Translations under genes and position numbers: made by a program
NCBI RefSeq assembly: GCF_009805585.1
Contig: NZ_VHIN01000010.1
Location: 310,001 to 374,000, forward strand
From: Glutamicibacter sp. JC586
GTDB lineage: Bacteria > Actinomycetota > Actinomycetes > Actinomycetales > Micrococcaceae
Length of the DNA: 64,000 bases
Direction: 5' to 3'
In this document: piece after piece, positions 5,100 to 34,161 of the stretch
How the letters are laid out: each line of letters opens with the position of its first letter
Numbering within the stretch: the first letter of the stretch is position 1
The notes under the pieces: model-generated
Databases searched by the model: none
Seen by the model: the letters and a program-made list of their open reading frames with translations, nothing else
Told to the model about the DNA's origin: nothing

Positions 5100-6155
5100 A
5101 TGACCAGCGTTCAGAACCCCGTCAATAGCGTGCCGACTGTCATTTCCACGGTGTATGGGGCCATCGGACATGTCGAGCTCAACCGCCCGGAAAAACTCAA
5201 CGCGCTCACCTTAGAGATGCTTACCGAGTTGGATCGTGTGCTCAAAGTCTGGGCCGAAGATTCCTCAATCCAGTTAGTTCTCCTAACCGGTCGCGGCGAG
5301 CGAGGCTTCTGTGCAGGCGGGGACATTGCGGACTTCCATCAAGCAATCACAACCGGCAAACATCAGGACTTCATCAATCTACTGTCCAGCGAATTTGATC
5401 TCGACTATCTGATCTCTACCTACCCCAAACCACTGATTACTCTGGCACATGGGATCACCATGGGTGGTGGTGTGGGGTTGGCCAGCCACGCTCCAGTTCG
5501 ACTGGTCACCGCCAGTGCCAAAATGGGAATGCCCGAAGCCAAGATTGGTTACACCCCGGATGTGGGCGGAAGTCATCTACTGGCCAATGCTCCTGGCTAT
5601 CTGGGCGAATACTTTGCGATGAGTGCCGCCTCGTTCTGTGGAGCAGACGCCGTCTTCATGGGATTTGCTGATGTGGTGGTCACCGACGCCTTTGCCGAAA
5701 ACATCTTGGATGAACTTGATGAGCTGCTGGGCCTGAGCCCCGCAGAAATCATCTCCGCTATCGAAGTTCTGCACGGCGCACCAGAGTCCTTCGCCCTCCA
5801 GCAAACCCAGGGCTGGGTTGATCATGCTTTCAGCGCCCAAACCCCACAAGAAGTGATCGAACGCCTTGAGCAGATGGTGCATCCGGCAGCAGGTCAGGCC
5901 GCACAATTACTAGCCGCTAACTCGCCATCGAGCATCTGTGCTGCGTTCTATTCGGTCCGCGAGGCACGCGCTGAACAAGACCTTCGCTCCGCCCTAAACC
6001 GTGAACTGCGCTTGGCCAGCTTTTTGATGCACCAACCAGATCTGGCAGAAGGAATCCGCGCCCAGGTCATAGACAAGGACCGCAACCCGCACTGGTCACC
6101 AGCGCTTTTGGCCGACGTCTTCCAGGATGAATTACGGTCCCTAGTCCGCGAATGA
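5100..6155 (+). CDS. Enoyl-CoA hydratase/isomerase family protein, 3-hydroxyisobutyryl-CoA hydrolase type
   Basis: A 351-aa crotonase-fold protein. The oxyanion-hole segments are visible as FCAGGDIADFH and TMGGGVGLASHA, with the catalytic-region MPEAKIGYTPDVGGSHLL following. The length (about 350 rather than 260 aa) and C-terminal extension match the 3-hydroxyisobutyryl-CoA hydrolase subgroup, which releases 3-hydroxyisobutyrate in valine catabolism. The frame opens at a GTG at 5061, but AAGAGAG lies 7 nt before ATG 5100. It ends five bases from the convergent FMN-glutamate-synthase gene. A general enoyl-CoA hydratase is the main alternative. Confidence 0.88.
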   Translation: MTSVQNPVNSVPTVISTVYGAIGHVELNRPEKLNALTLEMLTELDRVLKVWAEDSSIQLVLLTGRGERGFCAGGDIADFHQAITTGKHQDFINLLSSEFDLDYLISTYPKPLITLAHGITMGGGVGLASHAPVRLVTASAKMGMPEAKIGYTPDVGGSHLLANAPGYLGEYFAMSAASFCGADAVFMGFADVVVTDAFAENILDELDELLGLSPAEIISAIEVLHGAPESFALQQTQGWVDHAFSAQTPQEVIERLEQMVHPAAGQAAQLLAANSPSSICAAFYSVREARAEQDLRSALNRELRLASFLMHQPDLAEGIRAQVIDKDRNPHWSPALLADVFQDELRSLVRE

Positions 6156-6160
6156 CATAT

Positions 6161-7927
6161 TTAGCTATCTGCTCCAGGTCTGCCCTCGGGACGGGTCACA
6201 TCCGAATGCACCGGACGAACCTTCGCTGAATCCCTGGGCTCGATACGTGGTGCACTGACCGCGTCCTGTGGCTCGCGCACCACTGGTGGTTCGATGCCCA
6301 CACCCATCGGTTCTTCAAAGTGCAAGGGTGCGTGCTCCCCGAAGTGATCGGCATCTGCTTCCTCCCAGTCCTCTTTCCACGAACCCGGGGCATCTTCAAG
6401 CAGTTCTCCGGGACGCAGCCAGTGGAACAATGATGCGTAGGACCTGGTTGATTGCAGGTTGACTCGGCGACGAAGCATTCGCGTGTTCAGCTGCTTGGGG
6501 CTGCTTAGCCCCATGGACGCCATGATCTGCGCAGCTTCGGTGACCGTCAGACGGTGATAGTTGTAGACGCGGTGCCCTTTGTCTTCCACGTCCAAGGCAC
6601 GCATCAACCGCTTGTTCTGTGTGGCCACACCGACCGGGCAGTGATTGGTATGGCACTGTTGCGCCTGAATACATCCGGTAGCCATCATCATGGAACGTGC
6701 CGAGAAGGTGAAGTCAGCGCCTTGAATCAGACGCTTGATGATATCTGATCCATTGGCAATTTTTCCTGCAGCTGCCACACGGATTTCTTCGCGCAGTCCT
6801 GCACCCACCAAAGTATTGTGCACCAGCATCAGCCCTTCGGTCAGCGGTGCACCTACGTGATCTTCGTACTCCAGTGGTGCAGCACCGGTGCCACCTTCGG
6901 CGCCATCCACGGTAATGAAGTCCACCAAAATTCCGGTGTCCAGCATGCCCTTGCATAGGGCCATGATGTCGGTTCGGGAGCCGACACAGAACTTCACACC
7001 AATAGGCTTGCCGCCGCTAAGCTCACGCAGTTGAGCAACAAAGTGCATGAGCTCGCGTGGGGTGGAGAACTCGGCATGGCTGGCCGGTGAAATGCAGTCC
7101 TGACCCATGGGAACATCGCGGGCCTCAGCAATTTCAGCGGTGACCTTGGCTGCCGGCAGCACGCCTCCAAGCCCGGGCTTAGCTCCTTGGGAGAGCTTGA
7201 TGGTGATGCCTTTGACCTTCTCGTGGCTGGCTTTTTTGGCGAAGGTTTCTGGGTTGAACCGACCTTCGGATGTACGACAACCGAAGTATCCCGAACCGAT
7301 TTCCCAGAACAGGTCGGCCCCGTATTCCAGGTGGTACTTGGTCAGCCCACCTTCCCCGGTTTCATGAACGAACTCACCCATGGCAGCACCCTTGTTCATG
7401 GCCAATACTGCGTTAGCCGACAAAGCCCCGAAGCTCATCGATGAGATATTCATCAGAGAAATCTCGTACGGCTGGGTGCATTGGCTTGAGCCTACGGTGA
7501 CCCGGAACTGGTTGGTGGGCGGTGCCACCGGAGCAGCCGAATGCAACAGATACTCGTGTCCCAGCTCGTTGACATTGCGTTCGGTGCCGAAGGCTTTGTG
7601 GCTATCGGCTCCCTTAGCGCGAGCGTAGATCAATGAACGGGTATCACGGTCAAAGGGTTTGCCGTCGGTGTTGCGCTCAATGAAGTACTGCTGAATTTCT
7701 GGGCGGATGAATTCAAACAAATAGCGTGCATGCCCCACGATCGGAAAGTTGCGAAGAATCGCATGCTTTTTCTGCAGCAGGTCTCGTATTCCGAGCAGAA
7801 CAAGAAGCCCGGTCAGGGCCACTAAGATCCACCAGACCCAACCACCTGAGGTACTAGCCAGGATTGCGGTGACCACAAATCCTGTAGCGAGGACACCTAA
7901 GAACAGGAGAACCACTATTCGCATCAT
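6161..7927 (-). CDS. FMN-binding glutamate synthase family protein
   Basis: A 588-aa protein with two N-terminal hydrophobic segments (about residues 4-24 and 29-47) followed by a glutamate-synthase central/FMN domain. Motifs typical of GltB-like FMN barrels are present: ITIKLSQGAKPGLGG, DFITVDGAEGGTGAAP and a Cys-rich CIQAQQCHTNHCPVGVATQ segment for the iron-sulfur cluster. It lacks the glutaminase domain of true glutamate synthase, so it is one of the stand-alone membrane-anchored FMN proteins of unknown substrate. The C-terminal 70 residues are acidic then Pro/Arg-rich. Monocistronic, convergent with the crotonase gene. Confidence 0.9.
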   Translation of the reverse strand: MMRIVVLLFLGVLATGFVVTAILASTSGGWVWWILVALTGLLVLLGIRDLLQKKHAILRNFPIVGHARYLFEFIRPEIQQYFIERNTDGKPFDRDTRSLIYARAKGADSHKAFGTERNVNELGHEYLLHSAAPVAPPTNQFRVTVGSSQCTQPYEISLMNISSMSFGALSANAVLAMNKGAAMGEFVHETGEGGLTKYHLEYGADLFWEIGSGYFGCRTSEGRFNPETFAKKASHEKVKGITIKLSQGAKPGLGGVLPAAKVTAEIAEARDVPMGQDCISPASHAEFSTPRELMHFVAQLRELSGGKPIGVKFCVGSRTDIMALCKGMLDTGILVDFITVDGAEGGTGAAPLEYEDHVGAPLTEGLMLVHNTLVGAGLREEIRVAAAGKIANGSDIIKRLIQGADFTFSARSMMMATGCIQAQQCHTNHCPVGVATQNKRLMRALDVEDKGHRVYNYHRLTVTEAAQIMASMGLSSPKQLNTRMLRRRVNLQSTRSYASLFHWLRPGELLEDAPGSWKEDWEEADADHFGEHAPLHFEEPMGVGIEPPVVREPQDAVSAPRIEPRDSAKVRPVHSDVTRPEGRPGADS

Positions 7928-21656: not shown

Positions 21657-22537
21657 TCATGCTGCCAGAGCGACAGACTCGATCATTCTAGCCTCGAACT
21701 GGATCGGGGTCATTTTACCCAACCCTCGTTGTTTGCGCTTGCGGTGATACTTCCCCTCCAGCCACCCAATAACGGCCAAGCGAAGTTGTTGGCGGGAGGA
21801 CCACCATCGGCGGTCCAGGACGTTCTTCTGAAGCAAGCTGAAGAACGACTCCATGGCGGCATTGTCACCGGCTGCCCCGACCCGGCCCATCGAACCGACC
21901 AGCCCATGACGTTCTAACGCCTGGGTGAATTTCCTGGACCGGAATTGGCTACCGCGGTCGCTGTGGACCTTGACCCCGCGCGGGTACCCACGATGGGCCA
22001 CAGCCATTTCCACGGCGTTGACCGCCAGCTGGGCCTTCATCCTTGAGTCCATCGAATACCCCACGATCCGGTTACTGAACACGTCCTTGATCGCACACAA
22101 GTACAGTTTTCCCTCGCTCGTAGGGTGCTCGGTATTATCGGTCAGCCACAACTGGTTAGGCTGATCAGCGGTGAACTTCCGCCGCACCAAATCGTCATGC
22201 ACCGCAGGGCCCGCCGGGACGTGCTTGCGTTTGCGCTTGCTGATCACAGAACGGATCCCCCTGGCGGCACAACCGCCACACCCGGCGCTCTGAGACCTGG
22301 TATCCGGCGTCTTCCAGATCATCCGCAAGGACTCGGTAACCACCTTCGGGATCCTCCTCGTCAAGCTCGTGCACCTTGGCCATCAACTCCCGCTCTTCGA
22401 CTTCTCGAGCGGAGACGGGGTTCTTCAGCCACTTGTAGTACGCCTGGGTACTGAATCCCAAGACCTAAGCACGTCACCGCCACAGGAATGCGCTTCCTGC
22501 CTGATCTGGCGGCCAATTCTCGGACGAGCGGGCCCAT
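21657..22537 (-). pseudogene. IS3-family transposase orfB, two frameshifts
   Basis: Read in pieces: MGPLVRELAARSGRKRIPVAVTC from ATG 22537, then a shift near 22470 into VLGFSTQAYYKWLKNP, then a second shift near 22250 into the main catalytic part. That part contains LWLTDNTEHP, KVHSDRGSQF and NAAMESFFSLLQKN, so the three DDE acids survive. The orfB start overlaps the orfA stop (TAATG). Because the shifts are not at a usual slippery site, they look like decay rather than programmed frameshifting. Confidence 0.87.
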
Positions 22538-22827
22538 TATTTTGGGGAGCGAATATGCGGCTGCGAAAGATAGGCTGCGGCCTTGCGCACCACTTCGTTC
22601 TCCAATTCGAGCTCCCTGATGCGTTTGAGAGCTTGGGACATTTCTTTGCGTTCGTCAGCGTCGGAGGACGGGTTCATTCCGTGGGATTGGAAACGGGCGT
22701 CGCGGACCCAAGTTTCCAGTGCGGTCTTTGAGACACCTAGGTCCGCAGCGACTTGCTTCTGGGACATCCCCGACTCCACGAGAGCGACGGCGTCCTTCTT
22801 GAACTCGTAAGTGAAGATTCTTGGCAT
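22537..22827 (-). CDS. IS3-family transposase orfA
   Basis: A 96-aa protein with an HTH (FKKDAVALVESGMSQKQVAADLGVSKTALETWVRDA) and a C-terminal leucine-zipper-like coil (MSQALKRIRELELENEVVRKAAAYL), the normal form of IS3 OrfA, which binds the IS ends. It is intact. The stop overlaps the start of orfB. Confidence 0.93.
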   Translation of the reverse strand: MPRIFTYEFKKDAVALVESGMSQKQVAADLGVSKTALETWVRDARFQSHGMNPSSDADERKEMSQALKRIRELELENEVVRKAAAYLSQPHIRSPK

Positions 22828-22879
22828 GGTGATTGTTTCCTTCGGTTGGGCATAACCATAGCTGGGTTATGCGGTCGAA

Positions 22880-22905
22880 GTGTCAACCAAACCTTCAGCA
22901 GACCC
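22880..22905 (-). repeat. IS3 terminal inverted repeat, right
   Basis: Perfect reverse complement of 21625-21650. Confidence 0.93.
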
Positions 22906-23671
22906 AAATGATCCACACTGACCTTGGCTTTCGGCAGGTTCTCCCGCACTGCTTTCCGGAACTCTGAAGACATATCAATCGCCACGTACGCCACCCGTTG
23001 ACCCAATAACGTGGCCGCTTCTTCAACCAGTTCTTCACTGCTGCACCGCGACGGCCGTCCACAATATCTAAGATCTTTCCGGTGCTCAGATCGGTGAACA
23101 CGATAGACCACGGCTCAATCCTCACCACTTTGCCACCCCTGCCACGTGCGTACCGGACTTTGCGGAACCGGTGCTCATCAATGCCTAACCGGCTTACGAG
23201 CATCCGGTCCACCTCCCCGACCAGTTCACCGACAATGTTGAGCCGGGCCATGACCGTAGGCCATGAAACATCGTGCACTGCCGCGACACGAGAAACAGCG
23301 CGTAGTTCACTGCTCATCTCACTGACAAGTTGTTCAGTGAGCCGGGTGGTGATCCTGCCCCGGAAAGGCAACTGCTCGGTGGATTGCACGAAGGAACGGC
23401 GCGAGCATGCTACTTCTTTGCAGGCCAGGCGTCGCTTGCGAACCATTACTTGCAGGCCATCACCGCCAGCTGGCAGGTCCTTGACCCGGTGGACCGGCCT
23501 AGCCTGGATCCTGGTAGTCAGCACGCCACAGGAAAGGCAGGCAGCTTCGGTAGATATGGGCTCGACAAGTACTTGTCGCCCGGAAGATTCATGGGTGGCA
23601 TCGATGACTCGGTAGTCGTTGAGGTTCAGCAGAATCGACGCAGCGTCGATTAGCCCGGTATCCTTGAACAC
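22906..23671 (-). pseudogene. ISL3-family transposase, N-terminal part, frameshifted and truncated
   Basis: The N-terminal zinc-finger domain (ACLSCGVLTTRIQARPVHRVKDLP, CKEVACSRRSF) and the start of the DDE domain (GIDEHRFRKVRYARG, FTDLSTGKILDIVDGR) are clear. A one-base shift near 22990-23000 moves the frame to VAYVAIDMSSEFRKAVRENLPKAKVSVDH, where the protein ends at the IS3 boundary. The expected FHxxKL and the C-terminal half are missing. The upstream ISL3 terminal repeat survives at 23758-23779. Confidence 0.87.
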
Positions 23672-23757
23672 GGCTCGTAGTTCCTTGCAGATGAATTTGT
23701 TTTAGTCGACATCCATCTTCGCAGAGGGGCTGCGAGCCTTACTTATTTTGGGGTCAT

Positions 23758-23779
23758 CACGCTAAAACTTGAAGAGCCC
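23758..23779 (+). repeat. ISL3 terminal inverted repeat
   Basis: CACGCTAAAACTTGAAGAGC plus CC; read on the other strand it begins GGGCTCTTC, the usual outer tip of ISL3 elements. It lies 87 bp upstream of the transposase relic. A near-identical copy (20 of 22 bases) occurs alone at 28940-28961. Confidence 0.82.
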
Positions 23780-24053
23780 ATTAATGCTATGGGATGGCAG
23801 TGCCAACCAACAATGTTGCGAAAGATTCAGGCGCGCAAGCAATGGACCGAATTCCTGCCTGGATAATTTCAGCAAATAACCTCGGTTAGTTCTGCGTATC
23901 TTGCCAAGATACACGCAAGAATGATCCTATTTCTCCAGAAGAATACTAGGAAACTTTGAGTAAAAAATGACCACAAATCACAACGGTCTGCCGATTTATC
24001 GGATATCATCGAAAGGCACGTATCTTCTGGTCGACACTCGTGAAAGTGAATGG
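23780..24053. other. Non-coding region between the ISL3 end and the repeat-protein gene
   Basis: About 270 bp without a supportable gene, AT-richer by eye than the core genes. It must hold the promoter of the exported protein at 24054. No clear -35/-10 pair or hairpin was found. Confidence 0.4.
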
Positions 24054-25424
24054 ATGAAACTCGTCAAATCAATGGTGCCAGTCGCTGCCATTGTTTCCTT
24101 AGCCGCGGGGCTATTCGGCGCATCACCTGCCCAAGCAGCGGTAAAGTTACCAGCTGGATGCACCACCCAATATTCTCCTCGGAATAATTCCGAGGTTTTC
24201 TCTTTGGAGTGCAAGACGCTGGCTAAATCGGCAACATTCGCTCAATATGAGAATCTGCAATCACTCATCATAGGGCCAAAGAATAGTGGCGAAAAGTCGA
24301 AGGTTGCGATCACCAGCATTCCCAAACTCCCGGCAGGCCTAACTTACTTGTCGATTAACGCGCCTAAAGTTCAAAGCTATGCCCCCGTGGGACAAATCAA
24401 GAACCTCACGGTGCTCAACCTCGGTAACGGCAGTAGCGGATTGAGTATGAGCACTCTGGCGAAAGCGTCGCCAAAGCTGACCTACTTGGCCATCATGAAT
24501 GCCGCCCCGATTGACTACTCACCGTTAGGCAAACTCAAGCAGCTGCAATCTGTGTATGTTTCAGGTGATCTACCTTCTCAGAAAACTGTCGAAAACCAAT
24601 GGACGAAGGCTAAATATCCGGTAGCACTCAACGGTAGTTTAGTGCTGCCCGTCAATAATGATCAAGTCGATGAACGCGGACGAAAGATTGGCAAGGAATA
24701 CTCCTACGATGCACAGTCAAGGAAGCTTCGGTGGAATGGTTGCTGGAAGGGGCGAGACTACGTTAAGTTCGCTCCGAAGAATCCCGCAACCAAAGAGCAG
24801 CCGCAACTAAAGTCCGCTGGCATCTACTTCAACGGCCCGATCGAGGTTAGCTGCCTCTCCGAGTGGGCCAAGGATTCAAAGGCGAAGCTTCAAATAATGG
24901 GCAAGCCACAGATCGGAAAGACCGTCACCGCAAAGCTTTCCCATTCCAAGGACTACATCGACACATACCAGTGGACCCGCAGCGGCAAGCCGATTAGGGG
25001 TGCCACTAACGCGTCATACAAACTCGTCAAGGCCGATCTAGGTAAGCAGATCTCAGTTACTGCTACAGACAAGATTGACACATTTGGTTTCACTGGTGGG
25101 TCATTCCCCAAAACTGTGCCGTATTCCGTAACCAAAGTTGCGACGAAGAAAGCTCTTTACGGATTCACCACAAAGAAACCAACCACTTCTGGTCAAGCCA
25201 AAGTGGGCAAGAAACTCACGGCAAAGACTGCAAAGTGGGGAGGTTCCCCTACCAGATATGCGTACCAGTGGCTAAGGAACGGTAAGAACATCGGGGGCGC
25301 AACTAAGAGCTCTTACAAACTAGTCCAGGCCGATCGCAATAAAAAAATATCTGTGAGGATGACTGGTTCCAAGAAAAACTACCAGAACGCGTCGGCAACA
25401 TCCGGAACGGTGACTGTGCGCTAG
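24054..25424 (+). CDS. Secreted protein with LRR-like and Ig-like repeats
   Basis: A 456-aa exported protein. The signal peptide is MKLVKSMVPVAAIVSLAAGLFGASPAQA with cleavage after AQA. Residues of about 60-190 contain leucine-rich-like turns (LTYLSINAPKVQSYAPVGQIKNLTVLNLGN, LTYLAIMNAAPIDYSPLGKLKQLQSVYVSG). The C-terminal part has two related repeats (KVGKKLTAKTAKW...YAYQWLRNGKNIGGATKSSYKL; earlier KIGKTVTAKLSHSKDYIDTYQWTRSGKPIRGATNASYKL) of the type found in actinobacterial surface proteins. No LPXTG or GW anchor is seen. The open frame extends upstream to 23967; I chose ATG 24054 because it places the signal peptide at the start. It probably acts in adhesion or binding. Confidence 0.85.
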   Translation: MKLVKSMVPVAAIVSLAAGLFGASPAQAAVKLPAGCTTQYSPRNNSEVFSLECKTLAKSATFAQYENLQSLIIGPKNSGEKSKVAITSIPKLPAGLTYLSINAPKVQSYAPVGQIKNLTVLNLGNGSSGLSMSTLAKASPKLTYLAIMNAAPIDYSPLGKLKQLQSVYVSGDLPSQKTVENQWTKAKYPVALNGSLVLPVNNDQVDERGRKIGKEYSYDAQSRKLRWNGCWKGRDYVKFAPKNPATKEQPQLKSAGIYFNGPIEVSCLSEWAKDSKAKLQIMGKPQIGKTVTAKLSHSKDYIDTYQWTRSGKPIRGATNASYKLVKADLGKQISVTATDKIDTFGFTGGSFPKTVPYSVTKVATKKALYGFTTKKPTTSGQAKVGKKLTAKTAKWGGSPTRYAYQWLRNGKNIGGATKSSYKLVQADRNKKISVRMTGSKKNYQNASATSGTVTVR

Positions 25425-25589
25425 CGGTGATTCGACGCTACGTTTCCTGACCTAGCGGGAGTAACTATCTACGAGTCGGTAGCAACATCAAGACTCTTAC
25501 TGTGGGTTTCTGTTGCGTCACGTCGATATCTCCGGGAACTGAGCCGGTCAAGTTTTTGAGACACAAACTATGATTTTTTCTTATTAAAC

Positions 25590-25870
25590 TCAGGCCGCAT
25601 TAGCCACAGAATTCTGCTCCCAATCCCAGTCCAGAAGCATCCGAGGACTCAATCCACCATTAGCGGTGTGCGGACACTTTCGGTTATACCAAACCTCAAT
25701 GAAGTCCATCACCGCGGTCCGAGCCGCAATCCGACTCGTAAAAGCACGGTGGTTGAGCTGGAATGATGTGGTGATAAATCTCGTACTTAATCGTCGAGAA
25801 CGCTGACTCCGCCATCGCATTATCCCGACGTTAACCGTACGACCCACGAGCATCGCTTTGATCACTGATT
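25590..25870 (-). pseudogene. IS3-family transposase fragment, C-terminal, frameshifted
   Basis: One frame gives RDNAMAESAFSTIKYEIYHH (the DDE glutamate region), and after a shift the next gives RTAVMDFIEVWYNRKCPHTANGGLSPRML, the standard IS3 OrfB C-terminus. Only about 90 codons remain. It is not a copy of the IS3 at 21625, whose C-terminus reads GKYHRKRKQRGLGKMTP. Confidence 0.8.
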
Positions 25871-25991
25871 TCATGACCGTTTTTTGACCGCACTGCTTGA
25901 ATAAAAGCATTCTTGGCCGCTTCCCTTGGATATTCTTACCACGTCAAAGTTCGAACAAGCTCGCTATCACACTCTCACCAAAGGAAACACC

Positions 25992-26861
25992 ATGTGGAAC
26001 ACTCTGCACGAGAAAACGGTCGTGTCCATCGCAGCCTTGGCGCTGGTAGCTGTCGGCCTTGGCGGCTGCTCTAGCGCGACCAATGCCGAGACCACCAGTG
26101 CCAGCCCCTCAAAGACAGTCTCCGCACCTGCGGAAACTTCGCCCTCACCGTCTCAAAGCGCCACCTCGACTAAGTCGATGACGCGTTATGACTACGCCAA
26201 GCACGACATGAAATTTCTTGTCCTGCGTTCATCAGAGAGTTCCCCATACGGTGCCGATCCCGAATTCGCCAAGGTCACTTCCGAAGACGGCACCATAGCT
26301 TTCAGTGCCATGGACACACAGTCTGCATTCAAAGTTGGGATGAACACCTACCTGAAGCTTCGCACCGACCCCAAGTTCAGCAGGACAACCCGTACTCCTG
26401 AATCTGACGCCCAAGAGTTACAAAAATATAAGACCTTGAGCGACTTCCTACTAAAGGATGCCAAAAAATCAACGGATTCAGGCAAGCATTTCGACTTCGT
26501 CCCCTACCACATCATGTTGAGTGCATCGTTGTGGGAGAGCGAGGATAAAGACGTCAATGACCATGACACGTACCTAATTGATACCCAGCAGCGACAGACC
26601 ATCGGTTTCGACGGGTTCGAGTTCGTTGCAGGCACCGATGAAGTATCCGGCCATGAGCTTCTAGAAATTATCTTCACTGAAGAGGACCAATACAAGCTGG
26701 CAGAAGAACACACTGGAAGTGTAACGAGTGTCATTCGCGTTGTCATGGCGAAGATAGACGGTGAATGGTTGGTTGACGGCTTGCATTGGAAAACCTGGAC
26801 GATAAACGTCCAGGATAAGAACGGCAAGAAGGTCCTGAACATGGAAGATTTCCCGTACTAA
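25992..26861 (+). CDS. Lipoprotein of unknown function
   Basis: A 289-aa lipoprotein. The signal peptide ends in lipobox LGGC (residues about 17-20), followed by a Ser/Thr/Pro/Ala-rich linker to about residue 65 and a globular domain with many charged residues ending DGEWLVDGLHWKTWTINVQDKNG. The frame reaches back to 25926, but ATG 25992 has AAAGGAA upstream and starts the signal peptide, so it is preferred. I do not recognise the domain; the C-terminal GEWLVDG-type strand is reminiscent of NTF2-like proteins. An IS3 fragment lies 120 bp upstream. Confidence 0.82.
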   Translation: MWNTLHEKTVVSIAALALVAVGLGGCSSATNAETTSASPSKTVSAPAETSPSPSQSATSTKSMTRYDYAKHDMKFLVLRSSESSPYGADPEFAKVTSEDGTIAFSAMDTQSAFKVGMNTYLKLRTDPKFSRTTRTPESDAQELQKYKTLSDFLLKDAKKSTDSGKHFDFVPYHIMLSASLWESEDKDVNDHDTYLIDTQQRQTIGFDGFEFVAGTDEVSGHELLEIIFTEEDQYKLAEEHTGSVTSVIRVVMAKIDGEWLVDGLHWKTWTINVQDKNGKKVLNMEDFPY

Positions 26862-26881
26862 GAGAATTCATGTATTCACAC

Positions 26882-27121
26882 ACCAGCTTCGCTATCCGTA
26901 GCACCAAGCCACGCATCCACGGCACCACGATCATCACCCTCGGTGATGGTCAGCTTATCCATCTCCGTGACCAAGGCTTGTAGACCGCAGCTCAGCGCAC
27001 CGGCCTCGGCCTTGACGGCCTAGAGATCTTCCACGAAATCAGGTGGAAGCAGGATCGAAGCAAGGATCCTTGCGGTCGCAGCACTGAGGAGATCCTCGAA
27101 TACCTGGACAGTTTCTACTAG
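26882..27121 (+). pseudogene. Degenerate reading frame, unrecognised
   Basis: One frame reads TSFAIRSTKPRIHGTTIITLGDGQLIHL, one in-frame stop, then TAAQRTGLGLDGLEIFHEIRWKQD and RSTEEILEYLDSFY before a second stop. The codon use looks protein-like and there is no start codon with a ribosome site, so this may be the tail of a decayed gene. I cannot name the family. Confidence 0.3.
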
Positions 27122-27137
27122 TCGCTTTTCTGAATGA

Positions 27138-27169
27138 CAATGCCGCCCCTAAATTTGGGGGCGGCATTG
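27138..27169. terminator. Strong hairpin, terminator-like, abutting a group II intron
   Basis: CAATGCCGCCCC pairs with GGGGCGGCATTG (12 bp, loop TAAATTTG). The T-run after it is short (TGTTG) because the intron 5' end begins 6 bp downstream. Confidence 0.85.
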
Positions 27170-27174
27170 CTGTT

Positions 27175-27668
27175 GTACGCCCGGCATGGGCATCTACTTA
27201 AGGGAGAAACTACCTTGGAGGAGAAGGTGGTTTAACTCCTGACCAATTGCAACTGCGTCGCAGTGAGGTGGGGTGGGAAGGAAACCGGAGGCAAACCTCT
27301 GCATTGAGGAACGCGAATCACCAACAAGGCATGTTTGCCGGGGTAAGCGAGCAAGAGATGGTGAAGTCCGTTCCACTAGTTTTGTTCCAGCAACAAGCGG
27401 CAATTGTGTAAATGTGGCAGGCGCAGAGTGAAAGTAATTGTTCTTATCCGGGGAGGTCTATCCTAGTGCACCACCGGATTATCCAGTGGGGCGGTTCTGG
27501 TCGTGAGGTCAGTAACTGATGGGGCAGCAGTCAGCAGAGGTCATAATACCTGAGTAGGAATCGCGTTGGGTGAGGAGCCCGAACGTTTCCCCGAGACCCA
27601 TTGTGGTTGATGCGGGAGGCAGGGAAGGGCTGAACGCTTGGAAATGAGTATCTGAAGCAGTGATACTC
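27175..27668 (+). mobile_element. Group IIC intron, 5' part (domains I-III/IV), truncated
   Basis: The sequence from GTACGCCCGGCATGGGCA follows the order of conserved group IIC RNA blocks known from the Oceanobacillus iheyensis intron: 5' end GUGYGCCCGGCAUGGG, then GGAGGCAAACCTC...TGAGGAACGCGAA (27285-27320), CTTATCCGGGGAGGTCT (27448-27464) and CAGTCAGCAGAGGTCATAATACC (about 27527-27550). The third base is A where G is expected (GTACG). No reverse-transcriptase frame and no domain V/VI (cytosine-rich CCG...CGTACGG stem) follow; the homology ends in a small hairpin (GAGTATC/GATACTC) at about 27645-27668. It is therefore a dead 5' remnant. It lies directly after a hairpin, the usual IIC target. 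Confidence 0.85.
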
Positions 27669-27860
27669 ATGACAGCTCAACCCGACCTTCTCCTTGCCAG
27701 AGACTGCAGCACCATTCTTCACCGTAAACTTTACCTTCGCCACCGACGAAGCCTTGGAAGTAGCGCACAAAGTGCGGTTGCGTCCCTTACCAGTTGCAGT
27801 CATCACCACATTGAACTTTTTGCCACTGTCAGACAAACCCAAATTGCAATCGGTTTTAAT
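27669..27860 (-). pseudogene. Fragment of a secreted-type repeat protein
   Basis: On the minus strand, a frame reads DCNLGLSDSGKKFNVVMTATGK, then NRTLCATSKASSVAKVKFTVKNG and AAVSGKEKVGLS, with the Thr/Lys/Val-rich beta-strand style of actinobacterial exported proteins. It has no start and is cut at the intron remnant. It lies just downstream of the lipoprotein gene on the same strand. I cannot name the parent family. Confidence 0.35.
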
Positions 27861-27873
27861 GCGACAATGCAGA

Positions 27874-28587
27874 CTATAAAGTTACCGGTTCAAGGGCATC
27901 AAAGGCTGCATCGATATCTTGGTCAACGATTTCCCAACCACCATCTTTATTCTGTGCAAGATCCAGATCGTAGGACCACTTTCCGGTTGCCTTAACAGTC
28001 GCGTCGATCTCATTGCTCCACAGCGGAAACTCAGAGGTTTGCGTGAAGTGCACATTGACGATTTTCCGTGATTTATCAACTTTGCTCGTCGCTTTTCCTT
28101 GCTTCAGAGAAAGTATGCACGCTTTAGAATTCTGTTCGGTACACTTCTCATAAGGCTTGTAGAAATCCGTTTCGTCCCAGAACATGATAAGCGGCACAGT
28201 CAAGTCTGCGAATTCCTCGTTTTCCAGGTCCTTACCTTTCCACGAAGCCACCGGTTTCAGCTCGTCAGCGGAGTAGTACTTACCAAGGAAATTTATCATT
28301 TCGTCTATCGAGGCTCCGTCCTTAACCCATTGCCCGCTGAGGTAGTACCCGTTCGTATGGGAAGCACGAGCGTACTTCATCGCGTGAGCAACTGCTTCCT
28401 CGGTAGCTTCGGCAGTGCCAAACTCAGGAGCGGTGCTAGCCTTGGGGGTCGCTGTGGCGCTAGTTTTCACTTCATCTGCCGGGCTCTTACCCGCAGGAGA
28501 TCCTGTGGCCGCACAACCTGCCATAGCGATTGCGGTCGCAGCAATCAAAGCAAATGACGCCGCTTGGGGCCGGATAGAAAATGTCAT
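27874..28587 (-). CDS. Lipoprotein of unknown function
   Basis: A 237-aa lipoprotein. The signal peptide MTFSIRPQAASFALIAATAIAMAGC ends in lipobox MAGC, followed by a Ser/Thr/Ala/Lys linker (to about residue 55) and a domain with KYARASHTNGYYLSGQWVKDG and a C-terminal segment KWSYDLDLAQNKDGGWEIVDQ, again NTF2-like in look. A TTG at 28608 also opens the frame, but AAGGAA lies before ATG 28587. Its length and organisation resemble the lipoprotein at 25992, and both sit in the same IS-rich island. Function unknown. Confidence 0.82.
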   Translation of the reverse strand: MTFSIRPQAASFALIAATAIAMAGCAATGSPAGKSPADEVKTSATATPKASTAPEFGTAEATEEAVAHAMKYARASHTNGYYLSGQWVKDGASIDEMINFLGKYYSADELKPVASWKGKDLENEEFADLTVPLIMFWDETDFYKPYEKCTEQNSKACILSLKQGKATSKVDKSRKIVNVHFTQTSEFPLWSNEIDATVKATGKWSYDLDLAQNKDGGWEIVDQDIDAAFDALEPVTL

Positions 28588-28759
28588 TCTTTGGGGTTTC
28601 CTTATCAATTAGTTAATAGCTGACGTTGTATGCGATGAAGCAGGCTGGCATGTTGACCATCTCAGTACTCAAGAACCAGCGATCAGTTTAGCCACAAGGA
28701 GCCAGACCACGGCTGGTCCTGGGTTAGTTCCGGTCTACAGCGGACGGTTCCAGATCGAT

Positions 28760-28939
28760 TCACTGGTCAAGGCCTTGCGCCTCAGCTAGATGGGTGGCAA
28801 CGAGACGTGGGAACGCATGTGGCCCTAACTTCGCGCCATTACCCGTTTCTCCGGTTTTCCTTTCGAAGTCACGTAGTGATCGACGATACGCACTTGGTGC
28901 GGCGTGCTTCCCAGCCCGTGTCGCAAAGAGGGGATTTTC
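28760..28939 (-). pseudogene. Tyrosine recombinase, catalytic-domain fragment
   Basis: The minus strand reads NPLFATRAGKHAAPSAYRRSLRDFERKTGE then GAKLGPHAFPRLVATHLAEAQGLD. This is the H-x-x-R region of phage-type integrases (usually PHAFRRTVAT); the conserved RR is changed to PR. The fragment ends after 10 more codons and lacks the catalytic tyrosine. On the other side it joins an ISL3 end at 28940. It is dead. Confidence 0.62.
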
Positions 28940-28961
28940 CACGCTAAAAATCGAAGAGCCC
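28940..28961 (+). repeat. Orphan ISL3 terminal repeat
   Basis: CACGCTAAAAATCGAAGAGC plus CC matches the ISL3 end at 23758-23779 at 20 of 22 positions and in the same orientation. The interior of the element should lie to the left, but a recombinase fragment is there instead. Only this end survives. Confidence 0.7.
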
Positions 28962-29151
28962 CTAAACTGAGCGTCGTAATAAAATTCTTTGAGAAGCGCA
29001 ATGCTTTTAGCGCCGAGAGCTAAGGAGCCTGCAGAAGCTGCCGTTTTTGCGTCCGACCTCGGACGGCGTCGTGTCATATTCCTTGAAGACGCGACGAAGG
29101 ATATTCACATCTGCTTCGCTTGGCGCATGTACCACGCGCAGGCCACGGGCA

Positions 29152-29215
29152 GCGGGTTCTAACGGTAATGGGAACTTCTGATTGTTCAGGGAGTCCACCT
29201 GCCGTTAGAACCCGC
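29152..29215. repeat. 14-bp perfect inverted repeat with 36-bp spacer
   Basis: GCGGGTTCTAACGG (29152-29165) and CCGTTAGAACCCGC (29202-29215) are exact reverse complements. The spacer holds a small GAAC/GTTC hairpin. The region has no recognised gene and lies between a recombinase relic and a secreted-protein gene. It may be a recombination site, an IS remnant or an RNA structure. Confidence 0.6.
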
Positions 29216-29252
29216 CACACTTGTGAGCGGGGTCAAGGGACCTAGTTGGCCG

Positions 29253-29999
29253 TTACTTGGTAACTGGCGCAGTGGTCGTTGCTACAGCCCAGGAGGCCTT
29301 AGGAACGGTCACTCGGTAGGTCTTCTTCTTGGAATCCTTCAAGGTCACTGAAGCCTTGCCCTTGGTGAGCTTCACCGTCTTGATAGTCTTCCAGGTCTTG
29401 CCTGACTTGACTTGCAATGTTGCGTTCTTTGGGTTGTACCCAACGTAGCGGTTTTTCTCAGGAGAGAAAACGGTGGCAGTAGTCGTCAACGTGACTTTCT
29501 TTCCCGAGCGCTTGACGGAAAGGTTGCTCTTGGTTTTTCCTCGAACGTAGAACGACTTCTTGGTCGTGTCCCAGTAATCGCGCGTTGCCAGGCTGGGGGT
29601 TCCGTCATCCAAGTAATTGAAGGTCGCAACGACATACGCCGGAGCAATCGTGTAAACGCCAAGACCAGTGCGGTCTGGGCAGATTTCAATTCGATCGTTG
29701 CGAGTCGTCTGCTTCTTATTTACGAAGTCGAAGCCATAGTGATCCCACAGCTCGTCACCATTATGAGACACGTAGGATTCAACAGCTGCATCATTGAAAT
29801 CGTTGGCGAATTTAGCTTTCGCTGTCACCAAAATGTTTTTGCAAGAATCACTTGAAACAACAACATCTGAAACACTGTACCCTGTAATGTCGATTGGACG
29901 GTTGCTGGCTTGTGCTGGTGCAGCACCGAAAGCTAATGCACCGATCAGCGATACTACAGCTGAGGCACCGAGTGCTTTTTTGCGCGAGAAAATCCCCAT
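29253..29999 (-). CDS. Secreted protein of unknown function
   Basis: A 248-aa exported protein. The signal peptide MGIFSRKKALGASAVVSLIGALAFGAAPAQA has cleavage after AQA. The mature part is beta-rich, with two Cys that could form a disulfide (SDSCKNI and IEICPDR). The C-terminal third has the Lys/Thr-rich strand pattern SGKTWKTIKTVKLTKGKASVTLKDSKKKTYRVTVPKA typical of repeated extracellular modules in actinobacteria. An AAAGGG ribosome site precedes ATG 29999, and the longer frame to 30203 is not credible. It is divergent from the IS630 insertion and, before that insertion, from the Lys-rich gene at 31393. Confidence 0.8.
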   Translation of the reverse strand: MGIFSRKKALGASAVVSLIGALAFGAAPAQASNRPIDITGYSVSDVVVSSDSCKNILVTAKAKFANDFNDAAVESYVSHNGDELWDHYGFDFVNKKQTTRNDRIEICPDRTGLGVYTIAPAYVVATFNYLDDGTPSLATRDYWDTTKKSFYVRGKTKSNLSVKRSGKKVTLTTTATVFSPEKNRYVGYNPKNATLQVKSGKTWKTIKTVKLTKGKASVTLKDSKKKTYRVTVPKASWAVATTTAPVTK

Positions 30000-30193
30000 G
30001 TGATGACCCTTTTGTTCCGAGGGCGCCCCATGACAGCCCTTCGAAAATACTCTAAAGCATTTTCCCCATTGGCGAAGAAATATTTCACCTGACAAGTCAC
30101 TGAGAAAATTTTTCACTATCGAAAAGCGCCCGAAATAAACGGCAGTTTCGCAGTGCACACAAGAATGTGCGTTCCGCGAAAAGTCGCGTACTA

Positions 30194-31349
30194 TGGCGGG
30201 CACACTTCAAAAACGGATTCAATAACCTAAACCCGACCGGCGCGTTAATGCCTGCGTGAACCACACTGGGTGTTAATTTGTGGGTATGCCAAACCCCGAA
30301 GTCACCGACGCCGAACGCCGACTGCTCAAAGACTACAAGAACACTGCTCCCCACAAACTCGTGGTGAAGAAAGCAGAGGCACTCTTACTGCTTTCTGCGG
30401 GTGTTGACCCGGTGATCGTTGCTGACTTCGTCGACCGTGAACCTTCCACGCTGGAGGACTGGGCCCGGGACTGGAATAAGCAGCGTATGGCGTCCTTGTT
30501 TACAGGTCACGCAGGAAACCTGAACCGTAGTTTCCTCACTGAGAAGCAACGAGAGATTGCCGCTCAGGTCCTCTCCCAGCCACCAGGTGACCAGTACTTG
30601 CCAGCACAGTTCTGGGATGTTCCGAAACTAGATCACTGGTTATCCACGACGTTCAACGTTGAATATGCGTCCGCGACTTCGTATCAGTTCTTGTTGCGCA
30701 TGGCGGGGTTGTCTTTTCACAAGCCGGAGAAGTTTGACCGCAGACGAGGTGATGACAAGGCCATTGACCTGCGGATCAAAGAGATCCGTGAAGAACTCAC
30801 GGTCCCGTTAGCTGACGAGGACACGTTGGTCTTCGCTGCGGACGAGGTACGTATTGATCAGGAAGCCGTTGTCCGGCGGGCTTGGTATGAGAAGGGCACG
30901 AAAACCGTGGTGAAGGTTGACCGGCAGAAGGCTTCGCAGTCGTTTATCGGGTTCTTGGATCAGAACTCTGGTCAGTGTTTGACGTTGCGGTTGGATTGGC
31001 AGAACGCCGCCACGATCCTTGAAGCTGTGCAAACGTTGGTGGGGTTGCATCCAGGGAAACGGATAGTGATTGTGTGGGATAACGCGACGTGGCATAAGAA
31101 CCAGTTGCTACGTGCAGAGCTAGCTCAGGGCGAAACGTTGCAGGATGTTCATTTGATCAGTTTTCCGCCGTACGCTCCGGATCATAATCCGATTGAGCCT
31201 GTGTGGAATGATGCGAAGAACGCGATCAGTAATGTTCAGCGTGATGACTTTGAATCGACGGTGACGGCGTTTGAAGCGCATATCCGGTCACGGTTGTTTC
31301 ATTACAAGATCTGAGGTTTTGGCTGACCGATTTTGAAATGTGAGAGCCA
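30194..31349 (+). mobile_element. IS630-family insertion sequence, complete, with TA duplication
   Basis: It is bounded by imperfect 23-bp inverted repeats (TGGCGGGCACACTTCAAAA plus ACGG against TGGCTCTCACATTTCAAAA plus TCGG, 18 of 23 identical) and flanked on both sides by TA (30192-30193 and 31350-31351), the family's target duplication. The 1156-bp element carries one intact transposase gene. It separates the secreted gene at 29253 from the Lys-rich gene at 31393. Confidence 0.88.
30280..31314 (+). CDS. IS630-family transposase
   Basis: About 344 aa. An N-terminal HTH region is followed by an intact DDE domain: first Asp in LVFAADEVRI, second in IVIVWDNATWHK, and Glu in YAPDHNPIEPVW. The frame opens at a GTG at 30280; an ATG two codons later is an alternative. 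Length and motifs are complete, so this copy may still be active. Confidence 0.93.
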   Translation: MGMPNPEVTDAERRLLKDYKNTAPHKLVVKKAEALLLLSAGVDPVIVADFVDREPSTLEDWARDWNKQRMASLFTGHAGNLNRSFLTEKQREIAAQVLSQPPGDQYLPAQFWDVPKLDHWLSTTFNVEYASATSYQFLLRMAGLSFHKPEKFDRRRGDDKAIDLRIKEIREELTVPLADEDTLVFAADEVRIDQEAVVRRAWYEKGTKTVVKVDRQKASQSFIGFLDQNSGQCLTLRLDWQNAATILEAVQTLVGLHPGKRIVIVWDNATWHKNQLLRAELAQGETLQDVHLISFPPYAPDHNPIEPVWNDAKNAISNVQRDDFESTVTAFEAHIRSRLFHYKI

Positions 31350-31392
31350 TAGAATTATCCTAAGACTCATTTTCGAGAAAGATCGTAATACT

Positions 31393-32439
31393 TTGCGTAA
31401 AATCATTGCGGCCGTCGTCGCAGCATTCATGTTTGTCGGCGTTTCAGCGGTCCCATCACAGGCGGCGCCGTTAGACAATCCAGCTTTTACTATGGCCAGT
31501 GTCTACCGTGAAGAAACACCTGAATGCCGAACTGGCAAGATTTATGAAAAACCCCAATGTTTCAGTATCCATGTAGAGGCCTACAAGGAATACGAGAAAC
31601 GGGATATGCCGGAAAGTCGAGAACGAACTGGCAGTGCCACCATGGTGCTGACACAGTCGCAGACTGGCAAGAAGTTCAAGCCAACCGCGTACGTCAATGT
31701 CACTCATTTCTATGGACCGGCCTACGTTGGAGCCTCTACTGGGTTCAAGGCGAGCGAGCTTCCAAATCTCAAGCCTCCATACAATGTTTTTGAGCTTGAA
31801 ACGACCGTAAACCTTCCACGAGGGTCGATCTGCGACTGGCAAGGCTGGTGCGAGGAAGCCCCTGCAGTGAAAGACACTCGGTTCTACCGGGTGACCATCG
31901 ACGAAGAGACCTTCCGAAGTCGAGAAATCTTCAAGGCTACAGCGACCCAGAAGGTCACGAAGAAGGCGACGACAACTGCTGAAAAGTCAGCGTCCTACAC
32001 GGGCAAGGCATCGTATAAGGCGACGGAAACCGCAACCTACCGTTACAAGGGCAAAAACTACAAGGCGACTGCATCCCACACGGTGACCAAGACCAAAAAG
32101 GTCACCAAGAAGGCTAAAGCTTCAGCTAGCGCCAGTGCAACCAAGACTGCCACTAAAACAGTGGTGAGCACCAAGTCAGCCAAGGATGCTAAGGCTCAAG
32201 CGTCCTCCCAAGCGTCCTCCCAGGCTGCAAAGGATGCTACTGCAGCTGCCACCAAGGCGGCTAAGAAATCGGCCGAAAAGAAAGCTGCCTCCGAAGCGAA
32301 AAAGAAGATCACCAAGAAGGTGAAGTCTCAAGCCAAGGCAGACGCAAAGAAGAAGATCACCGAAAAGGTGAAAGCAGGGGCAAAGAAAGAAGCTCAGAAG
32401 AAAGCATTAGCCACCGCCAAGAAGAAAGCCAAAAAGTAG
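31393..32439 (+). CDS. Secreted Lys/Ala-rich basic protein
   Basis: A 348-aa exported protein with a TTG start. The signal peptide is MRKIIAAVVAAFMFVGVSAVPSQA. An N-terminal globular domain (residues about 25-180) has three Cys pairs or near-pairs (PECRTGK, QCFSIH, SICDWQGWCEE). From about 185 to the end the protein is low-complexity: repeated KVTKKATTT, YKATET, KKVTKKAKASASASATKTATKT, then SQASSQAAKDATAAATKAAKK and EKKAASEAKKKITKKVKSQAKA. That region is strongly basic, like histone-H1 or heparin-binding tails, and would bind teichoic acid, DNA or glycans. The IS630 element lies 43 bp upstream, so its original promoter is displaced. A terminator follows. Confidence 0.8.
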   Translation: MRKIIAAVVAAFMFVGVSAVPSQAAPLDNPAFTMASVYREETPECRTGKIYEKPQCFSIHVEAYKEYEKRDMPESRERTGSATMVLTQSQTGKKFKPTAYVNVTHFYGPAYVGASTGFKASELPNLKPPYNVFELETTVNLPRGSICDWQGWCEEAPAVKDTRFYRVTIDEETFRSREIFKATATQKVTKKATTTAEKSASYTGKASYKATETATYRYKGKNYKATASHTVTKTKKVTKKAKASASASATKTATKTVVSTKSAKDAKAQASSQASSQAAKDATAAATKAAKKSAEKKAASEAKKKITKKVKSQAKADAKKKITEKVKAGAKKEAQKKALATAKKKAKK

Positions 32440-32454
32440 CCAGCAGCTACCGGC

Positions 32455-32483
32455 CCCAGAGGAACTAGCCTCTGGGTCCTTCT
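32455..32483 (+). terminator. Terminator after the Lys-rich secreted protein
   Basis: CCCAGAGG pairs with CCTCTGGG (loop AACTAG), followed by TCCTTCTT. Confidence 0.75.
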
Positions 32484-32489
32484 TGACGT

Positions 32490-34161
32490 AAAACTAGCCC
32501 AAGTTTTTCATCACGGCGCTGACGGCCACCGAAATCCATACCCAAGGGATTCTCGGTGGCCATCTCCGCTTCTGCCCACGACAAAAAGCGCCCGAACCAC
32601 CAGCGCTGAGTACCAGGCTCCACCGACCTGGGTTGTAATGACCTTTCGAAATCAAAGAAACAACAGGACAACCACCAGTTCAGGCAGCCAGCTCGCCGTG
32701 CCGCCAACGCTGAAACAATGCGCCGATGCCCTCAATCAATTGGCATAGCAGCTGAGCTTCCGGCGCTCTCTCAGGGATCAGAAGCCGGCGTTGCCGGCCA
32801 CCAGAAACAATCTTCCCTGCCATCGAGAACAGCCGGTACCGCCACCGCTTCACATCCCACACCGAAGCCTCATGCCCGCCAGGTAGCGCAGCAAGTTGAA
32901 GCCACGACATCAAATTCACTGCGAACATCGCCAAGCCAGCCCACGCCTGGTTCGCGGCGAAAGACCAATACGGCAACATACCCAACCCCGCACTCTTCAG
33001 CGTTTTGATCCTGTTCTCGCACCGGCCACGGGCACGGTGCCGGGCATCGAGGAACGCCACATTGAACCGCGGCGCATTGGTCAAGAACGCGGTGACTCGG
33101 TTCCCGTCCGTATCGAACAAGTTCGCTTTCGCCCCGGGATGCAACGGCTCAGCACGCAAATAAATCCGTGTTCCCGGAGGGTAGTCCTTCAGCTCCATGA
33201 CCTTGGACGCGTCAATCACCCACGCATCATCACGCTGGCCACCGTCAGCGCTCAGCGCTGGTTCCCAGTACTTCTTCTCATCGATCCACCGGATGAACCG
33301 CTCCTTGACGACCGGTAGCGAATACGAGGTGGAGAACTGGAGCCCCAGCGAATCCAGGTGGTGCAAGAACTCCCGGGAGGACCCGGCGCTATCGGTGCGG
33401 ACCAGGACCTTCTCACCACACAGATTCCCGTGCTCATCATAGAAATCATCTGGCAGCTGAGCCAACGCCTGATCGAGTATGTCGATGTGGGATTTGGCGG
33501 AATTCGCTCCACGCTTTCCAGGGCGCAACTGCACGGCAAGCACTTCGCCGGTGCCGTTGGCTTTGCCGTAATCAGCCATAGCAATCATCGGTGAGAAAAC
33601 GTACCCACCTTTATAGGTGCCAGCACTATGTTCCTTATCTGAGTGGACATGAACTAACGGGGCGTCGATATCGATGACCAGCGGGTTGATTGCCGTGGCC
33701 AGCTTAGCTGGATCCCGTGGTCCAGCTGCCGCCCAGACCTTGGACCGCAAGGTCCGGGTCATAGTGGCGAAGCCATAGGCGAAAGCGTCTGGTTGTTTCT
33801 TAATGCGGCTCATGAATCGGCTGACCGTCGCGTCGGACGCCACTGTCCCGAACAGATCCGGTGCAGCGCGAAGCTGATCGATGTCTGTGGCTTGTTCACC
33901 GCCAGCTGCCATCGACAGGGCGAGCGCGCCGAGGATCTTTCCTGGCCGGTGGGTTGCAGTGGCTGGTACGAACTGGGAGAAACGATCTTCACAAAGCTGG
34001 CGGAAGTCCAGTGCGTTCAAAAAACCAGTGAGGACTGAAAGCCCTGCGTGGGAGACCAGATTCTGGCCGGTGAGTTGGGACGGGAGGGAAGGGAACACAT
34101 GGGTAGAATGGTTCACTGATCCTTTTATGTCTCATGTCAAGGTGAAAATCTTCTCTAGTTG
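32490..34161 (-). mobile_element. IS1380-family insertion sequence (copy B)
   Basis: Left end AAAACTAGCCCAAGTTTTTCATC; the putative right end at 34141-34161 (read on the minus strand, CAACTAGAGAAGATTTTCACC) matches it and, better, the copy A left end, allowing one gap. If that is right, the element is about 1.67 kb and has replaced the last codons of the IS110 gene next to it. Confidence 0.75.
32680..34116 (-). CDS. IS1380-family transposase, full length
   Basis: A 478-aa DDE transposase. N-terminal segments LVSHAGLSVLTGFLNALDF and the GTVASDATVSRFMSR region, first Asp in LVIDIDAPLVHVHSDKEH, second in VRTDSAGSSREFL, then RHRARGRCENRIKTLK with the catalytic Glu. The start is a GTG at 34116 with AAAGGATCA upstream. 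It appears intact. The C-terminal third is closely related to the relic at 21075. Confidence 0.93.
   Translation of the reverse strand: MNHSTHVFPSLPSQLTGQNLVSHAGLSVLTGFLNALDFRQLCEDRFSQFVPATATHRPGKILGALALSMAAGGEQATDIDQLRAAPDLFGTVASDATVSRFMSRIKKQPDAFAYGFATMTRTLRSKVWAAAGPRDPAKLATAINPLVIDIDAPLVHVHSDKEHSAGTYKGGYVFSPMIAMADYGKANGTGEVLAVQLRPGKRGANSAKSHIDILDQALAQLPDDFYDEHGNLCGEKVLVRTDSAGSSREFLHHLDSLGLQFSTSYSLPVVKERFIRWIDEKKYWEPALSADGGQRDDAWVIDASKVMELKDYPPGTRIYLRAEPLHPGAKANLFDTDGNRVTAFLTNAPRFNVAFLDARHRARGRCENRIKTLKSAGLGMLPYWSFAANQAWAGLAMFAVNLMSWLQLAALPGGHEASVWDVKRWRYRLFSMAGKIVSGGRQRRLLIPERAPEAQLLCQLIEGIGALFQRWRHGELAA

What the first reader, a model, noticed from the sequence alone, without database searches (positions are those of the whole stretch)
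27138..27668. Group IIC intron 5' remnant parked directly after a hairpin terminator
The sequence shows, in order, the conserved RNA blocks of a group IIC intron (GTACGCCCGGCATGGG; GGAGGCAAACCTC...GAGGAACGCGAA; CTTATCCGGGGAGGTCT; GTCAGCAGAGGTCATAATACC). It starts 5 bp after a 12-bp perfect hairpin. Group IIC introns are known to insert behind terminators, so this is a textbook insertion site. The intron has lost its reverse transcriptase, domains V/VI and 3' splice site; its 3' boundary is joined to a fragment of a secreted-protein gene. A +3 change (GTACG) may also weaken the 5' splice site.
Basis: partly seen in the sequence, partly recalled or inferred. Interest (0 to 1): 0.72.

Follow-up and report, generated by a model that had tools for sequence, protein, structure and literature searches.

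The report
Broken half of a group IIC intron
This is the decayed front half of a common kind of bacterial jumping intron, sitting just behind a terminator-like hairpin where such introns normally land; it is real but ordinary and very probably dead.

Summary
Rfam models find group II intron RNA at 27257-27442 (RF02001, 89 bits) and 27492-27630 (RF01998, 43.9 bits). The other 1486 nt (rest of DIV with the RT gene, DV, DVI, 3' splice site) are missing here and were not found elsewhere in this genome. A 12-bp perfect hairpin ends 5 nt upstream; the 13 other copies scored also sit behind hairpins. The closest solved relative of the family's RT is GsI-IIC RT. The 5' end fits the published class C consensus, and GTACG is in all copies examined, so the proposed +3 lesion is not supported. 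The copy is decayed: 17 of 119 consensus pairs are broken, against 0-4 in 13 relatives. The right side is joined to an internal piece of a secreted-protein gene. A majority of bacterial group II intron copies are truncated (PMC4028801, passage). Verdict: an ordinary, dead retroelement remnant; new member of a known kind.

The parts
27138..27169 (.). 12-bp perfect hairpin (arms 27138-27149 / 27158-27169), terminator-like target of the intron; the intron begins 5 nt after it
   Evidence: letters checked; hairpin scan with 300 random controls, 0 as good, for a longer register with one mismatch. The T-run rule of the terminator scan is not met
27170..27174 (+). CTGTT, last bases of the 5' exon side (presumed IBS1 region)
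   Evidence: position before the 5' splice site; IBS1-EBS1 pairing was not demonstrated
27175..27659 (+). group IIC intron remnant: 5' splice site, DI, DII, DIII and the start of DIV
   Evidence: 79% identity to positions 1-473 of the full-length 1959-nt intron L031:3216-5174; 82% to L029
27175..27189 (+). GTACGCCCGGCATGG, exact match to the class C 5' consensus GUNYGCCNRGCAUGG; only match on the + strand of the window (the only strand scanned)
   Evidence: consensus from PMC4028801
27257..27442 (+). Rfam RF02001 (group-II-D1D4-3), DI part
   Evidence: 89 bits, E 2.2e-17
27492..27630 (+). Rfam RF01998 (group-II-D1D4-1), taken here as the DII-DIII part
   Evidence: 43.9 bits, E 1.7e-5; domain names of the stretch are recalled
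27660..27677 (.). junction stretch, not firmly assigned; may be a few more bases of DIV (holds most of one arm of a 9-bp inverted repeat ATGAGTATC / GATACTCAT, 27644-27670)
   Evidence: alignment; similarity to relatives' DIV only marginal; repeat coordinates
27678..27860 (-). internal fragment of a secreted Ig-like-repeat protein gene, apparently lacking both ends
   Evidence: 52% identity over 61 residues to part of a 592-aa ORF in G015 and 38% to a 581-aa ORF in G001; position inside those ORFs; Ig-type Pfam matches in the G015 ORF, none in the fragment itself

Best explanation
A group IIC (class C) intron inserted by retrotransposition behind a terminator-like hairpin in an ancestor of this genome. 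A later deletion removed about 1.49 kb of the intron (rest of DIV with the reverse transcriptase gene, DV, DVI, 3' splice site) together with the end of a neighbouring convergent gene. The remaining 485 nt can neither splice nor move: DV, the catalytic heart, and the maturase are missing here and were found nowhere else in the genome. The stretch has since drifted, losing base pairs in DI-DIII. Shown: identity, left boundary, missing parts, hairpin, pair decay. Inferred: insertion by reverse splicing, the order of events, and the lack of function.
For: Rfam DI-DIV models. Alignment to full-length same-genus introns that start at the same base and carry an open RT frame; 4 of the 5 same-genus loci fetched at length have a DV match over the gathering score, the fifth, L029, has a DV-like sequence (by eye) that is not listed at that score. 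No RVT_1, no TIGR04416, no RF00029 and no further intron sequence in the own genome. Hairpin directly upstream in 14 of 14 copies scored, the window's included. The family's RT (L031) is nearest to GsI-IIC RT, E 9.8e-144, and matches TIGR04416. 24 private substitutions at 232 columns invariant in the nine other representatives, against 1-8 at 194-216 columns for those nine; 17 of 119 consensus pairs broken, against 0-4 in the 13 relatives. Longer terminal branch (0.15) than the nearest same-genus copy L029a (0.012, or 0.046 with the internal branch). A gene fragment cut at the right-hand join.
Against: No empty or full-length version of this very site was found: the left flank matches only short pieces in the genus, and the open stretch before the hairpin has no match in the 196 other genomes searched, so insertion followed by deletion is inferred. 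Two pairs of the window copy changed on both sides yet still pair and three changed on one side, so part of its divergence may predate decay. The hairpin lacks a T-run and is not listed as a terminator. Long branches also occur in other copies (L039 0.183, L040 0.103, L037 0.083; L034's 0.17 is inflated by non-homologous flank in the alignment), so branch length alone does not show decay. The consensus structure was fitted to nine of the 13 relatives, which favours those.
Confidence: 0.95

Rival explanations
1. The fragment is one half of a split, trans-splicing intron whose DIV-DVI half lies elsewhere in the genome.
For: The break lies in DIV, where natural and engineered split introns are usually broken (recalled; PMC3410883 on tripartite introns seen only as a search listing with the start of its abstract).
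Against: No RF00029 match at E <= 0.001 in the genome (150 of 210 candidates scored, and this model at gathering score also misses L029). A search with the full 1959-nt relative finds nothing beyond position 473 except chance-level short hits, E >= 0.49. No RT. 17 of 119 pairs broken. The assembly has 26 contigs, so a missing piece is not fully excluded.
Confidence: 0.02
2. The retained 485-nt RNA has been domesticated, for example as a structured 3' UTR or small RNA behind the hairpin.
For: It still folds (-169.3 kcal/mol over 485 nt; not compared with shuffles) and two pairs changed on both sides but still pair.
Against: Pairs are breaking well beyond the level of the relatives. It lies behind a hairpin and in front of a convergent gene fragment. 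No remnant of the same site was seen in the 17 other genomes of the genus: the hits there are copies with an RT frame in four genomes, a distant broken copy in G013 and a short piece in G001, and the left flank has only short matches.
Confidence: 0.03
3. The copy arose already truncated, by incomplete reverse transcription during insertion.
For: Truncated group II introns are common (PMC4028801).
Against: Target-primed synthesis starts at the intron's 3' end, so incomplete copying loses the 5' end; here the 5' end is complete and the 3' end is lost (established mechanism, recalled). The neighbouring gene is cut at the same join.
Confidence: 0.04

Closest known systems
Group IIC (bacterial class C) introns, e.g. 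the GsI-IIC intron
   Same: 5' end GUNYGCC..., the relatives' 3' end CCTACTCGAT, DI-DIII RNA, a GsI-IIC-like RT in full-length relatives, insertion directly behind a hairpin
   Different: the window copy keeps 485 nt, matching positions 1-473 of 1959, and has broken pairs
   Same: 79-82% identity over the retained part, same 5' boundary, same kind of site
   Different: they keep the RT frame, DV, DVI and the 3' splice site; flanks differ
Intron on plasmid pYJN5-2 of Paenarthrobacter sp. YJN-5 (NZ_CP053546.1), the one hit among 72,556 plasmid records
   Same: 72.5% identity over 71% of the query, behind a hairpin
   Different: its RT frame is broken (longest open stretch 253 codons); no feature is annotated under the match
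Group II introns on contigs of an Akkermansia MAG (L026), a Spirochaetaceae MAG (L027) and a Lachnospiraceae genome (L028)
   Same: share the exact 21-base block at 27530-27550 and match RF02001 and RF01998
   Different: not aligned to the window further; RF02001 scores 95.8-149.9 bits against 89 here

Membership tests
Group IIC intron | group II DI-DIII RNA | tested here: met
   RF02001 and RF01998 over gathering scores
Group IIC intron | class C 5' boundary GUNYGCCNRGCAUGG | tested here: met
   exact match at 27175 (consensus from PMC4028801)
Group IIC intron | insertion behind a terminator-like hairpin | tested here: met
   14 of 14 copies scored; the window hairpin lacks a T-run
Group IIC intron | class C reverse transcriptase/maturase | tested here: not met
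   not found in the window copy or own genome; present in full-length relatives, nearest to GsI-IIC RT (no tree of RT classes built). Hence filed as a remnant of the family, not as a functional member
Group IIC intron | DV, DVI and 3' boundary CCUACYCGAU | tested here: not met
   not found here; four same-genus relatives end CCTACTCGAT
Group IIC intron | EBS1-IBS1 and EBS3-IBS3 exon pairings only | not tested
   EBS positions were not assigned
Group IIC intron | self-splicing and mobility | not testable with these tools
   needs the bench; not expected without DV

The most novel reading that the evidence does not exclude
The 485-nt DI-DIII remnant is a retained, functional RNA (for example a hairpin-anchored 3' RNA that competes for or guides intron machinery brought in from related strains), rather than a dead relic.
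Probability: 0.02. Interest if true: 0.5.

Novelty: new member of a known kind. Interest (0 to 1): 0.12.

Why it matters
As a single locus it matters little: it records one past invasion of this lineage by a class C intron that still looks intact in four related genomes and now seems extinct here. It is a clean example of how such copies die (deletion from DIV into the neighbouring gene, then loss of RNA pairs), and it shows that DI-DIII models find remnants that searches for the RT or DV miss.

Tried and rejected
The +3 splice-site lesion was tested and rejected. A protein-coding explanation of the blocks: ORFs over 27175-27659 exist (69 aa at 27194-27403 minus; the 103-aa ORF 27531-27842 minus, which runs out of the gene fragment into the intron). 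The 69-aa ORF was not put through a family search; RNA models and full-length relatives explain the DNA better. Search for an intact version of the left flank or of the gene behind the hairpin: nothing useful. Search for the organism through plasmids: no match. A terminator scan with the T-run rule did not list the hairpin. I first read the 9-bp inverted repeat at the join as filler from a template switch. The alignment suggests that the stretch from 27660 may simply be more DIV, but shuffles give only weak support (59 to 284 of 2000 as good for five of nine relatives, 911 to 1678 for the other four), so it is left open. One search gave 9 broken pairs and 12 private substitutions for the truncated copy L034, which looked like shared decay; with its non-homologous flank set aside these fall to 1 of 104 pairs and 2 of 194 columns, so L034 is truncated but its retained pairs are not decayed. 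Two copies with the same 3' flank and 5' flanks that do not align (L031, L033) looked like transduction of flanking DNA. The flank proved to match different places in the genus and, in L031, to be cut by a transposase-like ORF, so it was not pursued. Not examined: 9 of the 22 places in other genomes listed (the shorter matches; three of them, L015, L016 and L024, were only scanned with Rfam, and only L015 matched), three of the five copies of G014 and the third copy of G013.

Full report
WHAT WAS CHECKED. The window is bases 310001-374000 of contig 3 of a 3.52-Mb genome in 26 contigs. No call names the organism; the one plasmid hit of the element is in Paenarthrobacter, family Micrococcaceae. 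Rfam cmscan of 24000-33000 gives two group II intron matches, RF02001 at 27257-27442 (89 bits, E 2.2e-17) and RF01998 at 27492-27630 (43.9 bits, E 1.7e-5), both on the + strand and over gathering score. One of them, the 21-base block at 27530-27550, occurs exactly in three contigs of the genome collection, from an Akkermansia MAG, a Spirochaetaceae MAG and a Lachnospiraceae genome, and all three have RF02001 and RF01998 matches.

BOUNDARIES FROM RELATIVES. A DNA search of 295 related genomes finds the element in 19, the own genome included (two candidates were scored per genome in the rows shown, so copies per genome are lower bounds). The nearest are six copies in four other genomes of the same genus, at 79-82% identity, from query bases 44-46 (27173-27175) to 27659; a fifth same-genus genome, G001, has only a 66-base piece. 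In those four genomes the intron is 1959 nt long, from GTACGCCC to CCTACTCGAT, with a 470-codon open frame of a reverse transcriptase in DIV and DV over the gathering score in L030-L033. The DV of L029 is not listed at that score. A search of the own genome with the full 1959-nt relative L031 gives 27175-27659 (relative positions 1-473) and otherwise only short hits with E of 0.49 or more. Positions 474-1959, 1486 nt, are therefore missing. The own genome has no RVT_1, no TIGR04416 and no RF00029 match (150 of 210 candidates scored). Within the genus, RF02001 matches in 5 of 18 genomes, the own one included, and TIGR04416 in 7 of 18, over its cut-off in 4. Of the five with the RNA, this genome is the only one without the RT.

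CLASS. The RT of the relative L031 matches TIGR04416 group II RT/maturase, RVT_1 and GIIM, and among solved structures is closest to GsI-IIC RT (E 9.8e-144), next to another group II RT/maturase, 7uim (1.7e-100), ahead of LtrA (2.2e-36). A tree of RT classes was not built. The class C boundary consensus in PMC4028801 (passages seen) is 5' GUNYGCCNRGCAUGG and CCUACYCGAU 3'. The window's GTACGCCCGGCATGG fits it and is the only fit on the window's + strand.

SITE. The hairpin 27138-27149/27158-27169 is a perfect 12-bp stem, 5 nt before the intron. In a hairpin score over the 50 nt before each 5' splice site, which allows one mismatch and G-T pairs, all 14 copies scored have hairpins ending 0-7 nt from the intron, and 0-4 of 300 random 50-mers of the same locus score as high. 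These are the window, the plasmid copy and 12 of the 22 places in other genomes listed. The second copy of the L029 tandem was left out because its upstream DNA is the first copy's DVI, and nine shorter matches were not scored. That class C introns insert behind rho-independent terminators is established (PMC4424553, passages; PMC8919778, passages). The window hairpin is not followed by a T-run and is not listed by the terminator scan; the intron sits where the T-run would be expected.

DECAY. In a 14-row alignment of the 5' half, ten representatives were compared, dropping the near-identical L030, L032, L033 and L036. A first count made the truncated copy L034 look decayed too; that was an artefact of its non-homologous flank, so the figures used are those, with that flank set aside. 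The window has 24 private substitutions at 232 columns invariant in the nine others; each of those nine has 1-8 at 194-216 columns. Of 119 pairs of a consensus structure computed from nine relatives without the window, the window breaks 17; the 13 relatives break 0-4 (L034 1 of its 104 countable pairs). The structure was fitted to nine of the 13, which favours them, but L030, L032, L033 and L034 were not used and break 1-2. Two window pairs changed on both sides yet still pair. In the tree the window branches next to the same-genus copies with a terminal branch of 0.15, against 0.012 for L029a. L039 (0.183, shortened RT frame), L040 (0.103) and L037 (0.083, cut RT frame) also have long branches, and L034's 0.17 includes its flank, so branch length is weak evidence.

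RIGHT JOIN. On the minus strand, 27678-27860 encodes 61 residues 52% identical to an internal part of a 592-aa ORF of G015, and a slightly shorter stretch 38% identical to a 581-aa ORF of G001. The G015 ORF continues for about 70 residues beyond the similar stretch, which the window lacks, so the gene fragment is cut at the join; it also seems cut at its other end, next to the ORF 27874-28608. Between 27660 and 27677 the assignment is open.

INTERPRETATION. Insertion behind a hairpin by an intact class C intron, then a deletion running from DIV through the 3' end into the neighbouring gene, then drift, accounts for what is seen. Loss of the 3' end with a complete 5' end is not what incomplete target-primed reverse transcription gives (recalled mechanism). 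Trans-splicing is disfavoured because no DV or RT was found in the genome. PMC4028801 states that a majority of bacterial group II intron copies are truncated, and PMC3522654 describes fragments that generally have no counterpart of the same intron in the same genome, in Enterobacteriales (passages). The finding is therefore correct, but ordinary.

Noticed in passing
L029:3942-5900 and 5901-7859 (genome G014): Two 100% identical full-length class C introns stand head to tail without any base between them, the second directly behind the DVI hairpin of the first; this genome has five copies with the same RF02001 score. Either a repeat insertion at the same site or behind the intron's own hairpin, or an assembly duplicate.
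   Followed up: partly
L034, L037, L038, L039, L003: Further damaged copies of the same intron family: L034 loses homology at about the end of DIII, L037 has a cut RT frame, L038 a stop in the RT, L039 a shortened RT frame (intron of about 1548 nt), L003 a broken RT frame.
   Followed up: partly
L031:3212-6030 and L033:3448-6266: Two genomes share the intron plus 856 bp of 3' flank at 99% identity while the 5' flanks do not align at E 1e-10. Parts of the flank match different places in the genus.
   Followed up: partly
G013:C3:234016-238531 (no locus fetched): A third, more distant group II intron, RF02001 at 71.5 bits with the RT match split into two pieces.
   Followed up: no
window 21657-34116: Transposon-rich surroundings: IS3 (21657-22364 minus, over cut-off; 25590-25910 minus, weak and below cut-off), IS630 (30280-31314, plus), IS1380 (32680-34116, minus); 22895-23671 minus resembles the transposase-like ORF beside L031 (by eye).
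   Followed up: partly
window 25992-26861 (+) and 27874-28608 (-): Two ORFs on either side of the remnant that look like lipoproteins (by eye), without a Pfam match over cut-off.
   Followed up: partly
window 26984-27122 (+): An open 45-codon stretch ending just before the hairpin, apparently a gene end, with a match in 1 of 197 genomes searched, its own.
   Followed up: partly
window 27644-27670: A 9-bp perfect inverted repeat (9-nt loop) spans the join between intron and the unassigned stretch; cause unknown.
   Followed up: partly
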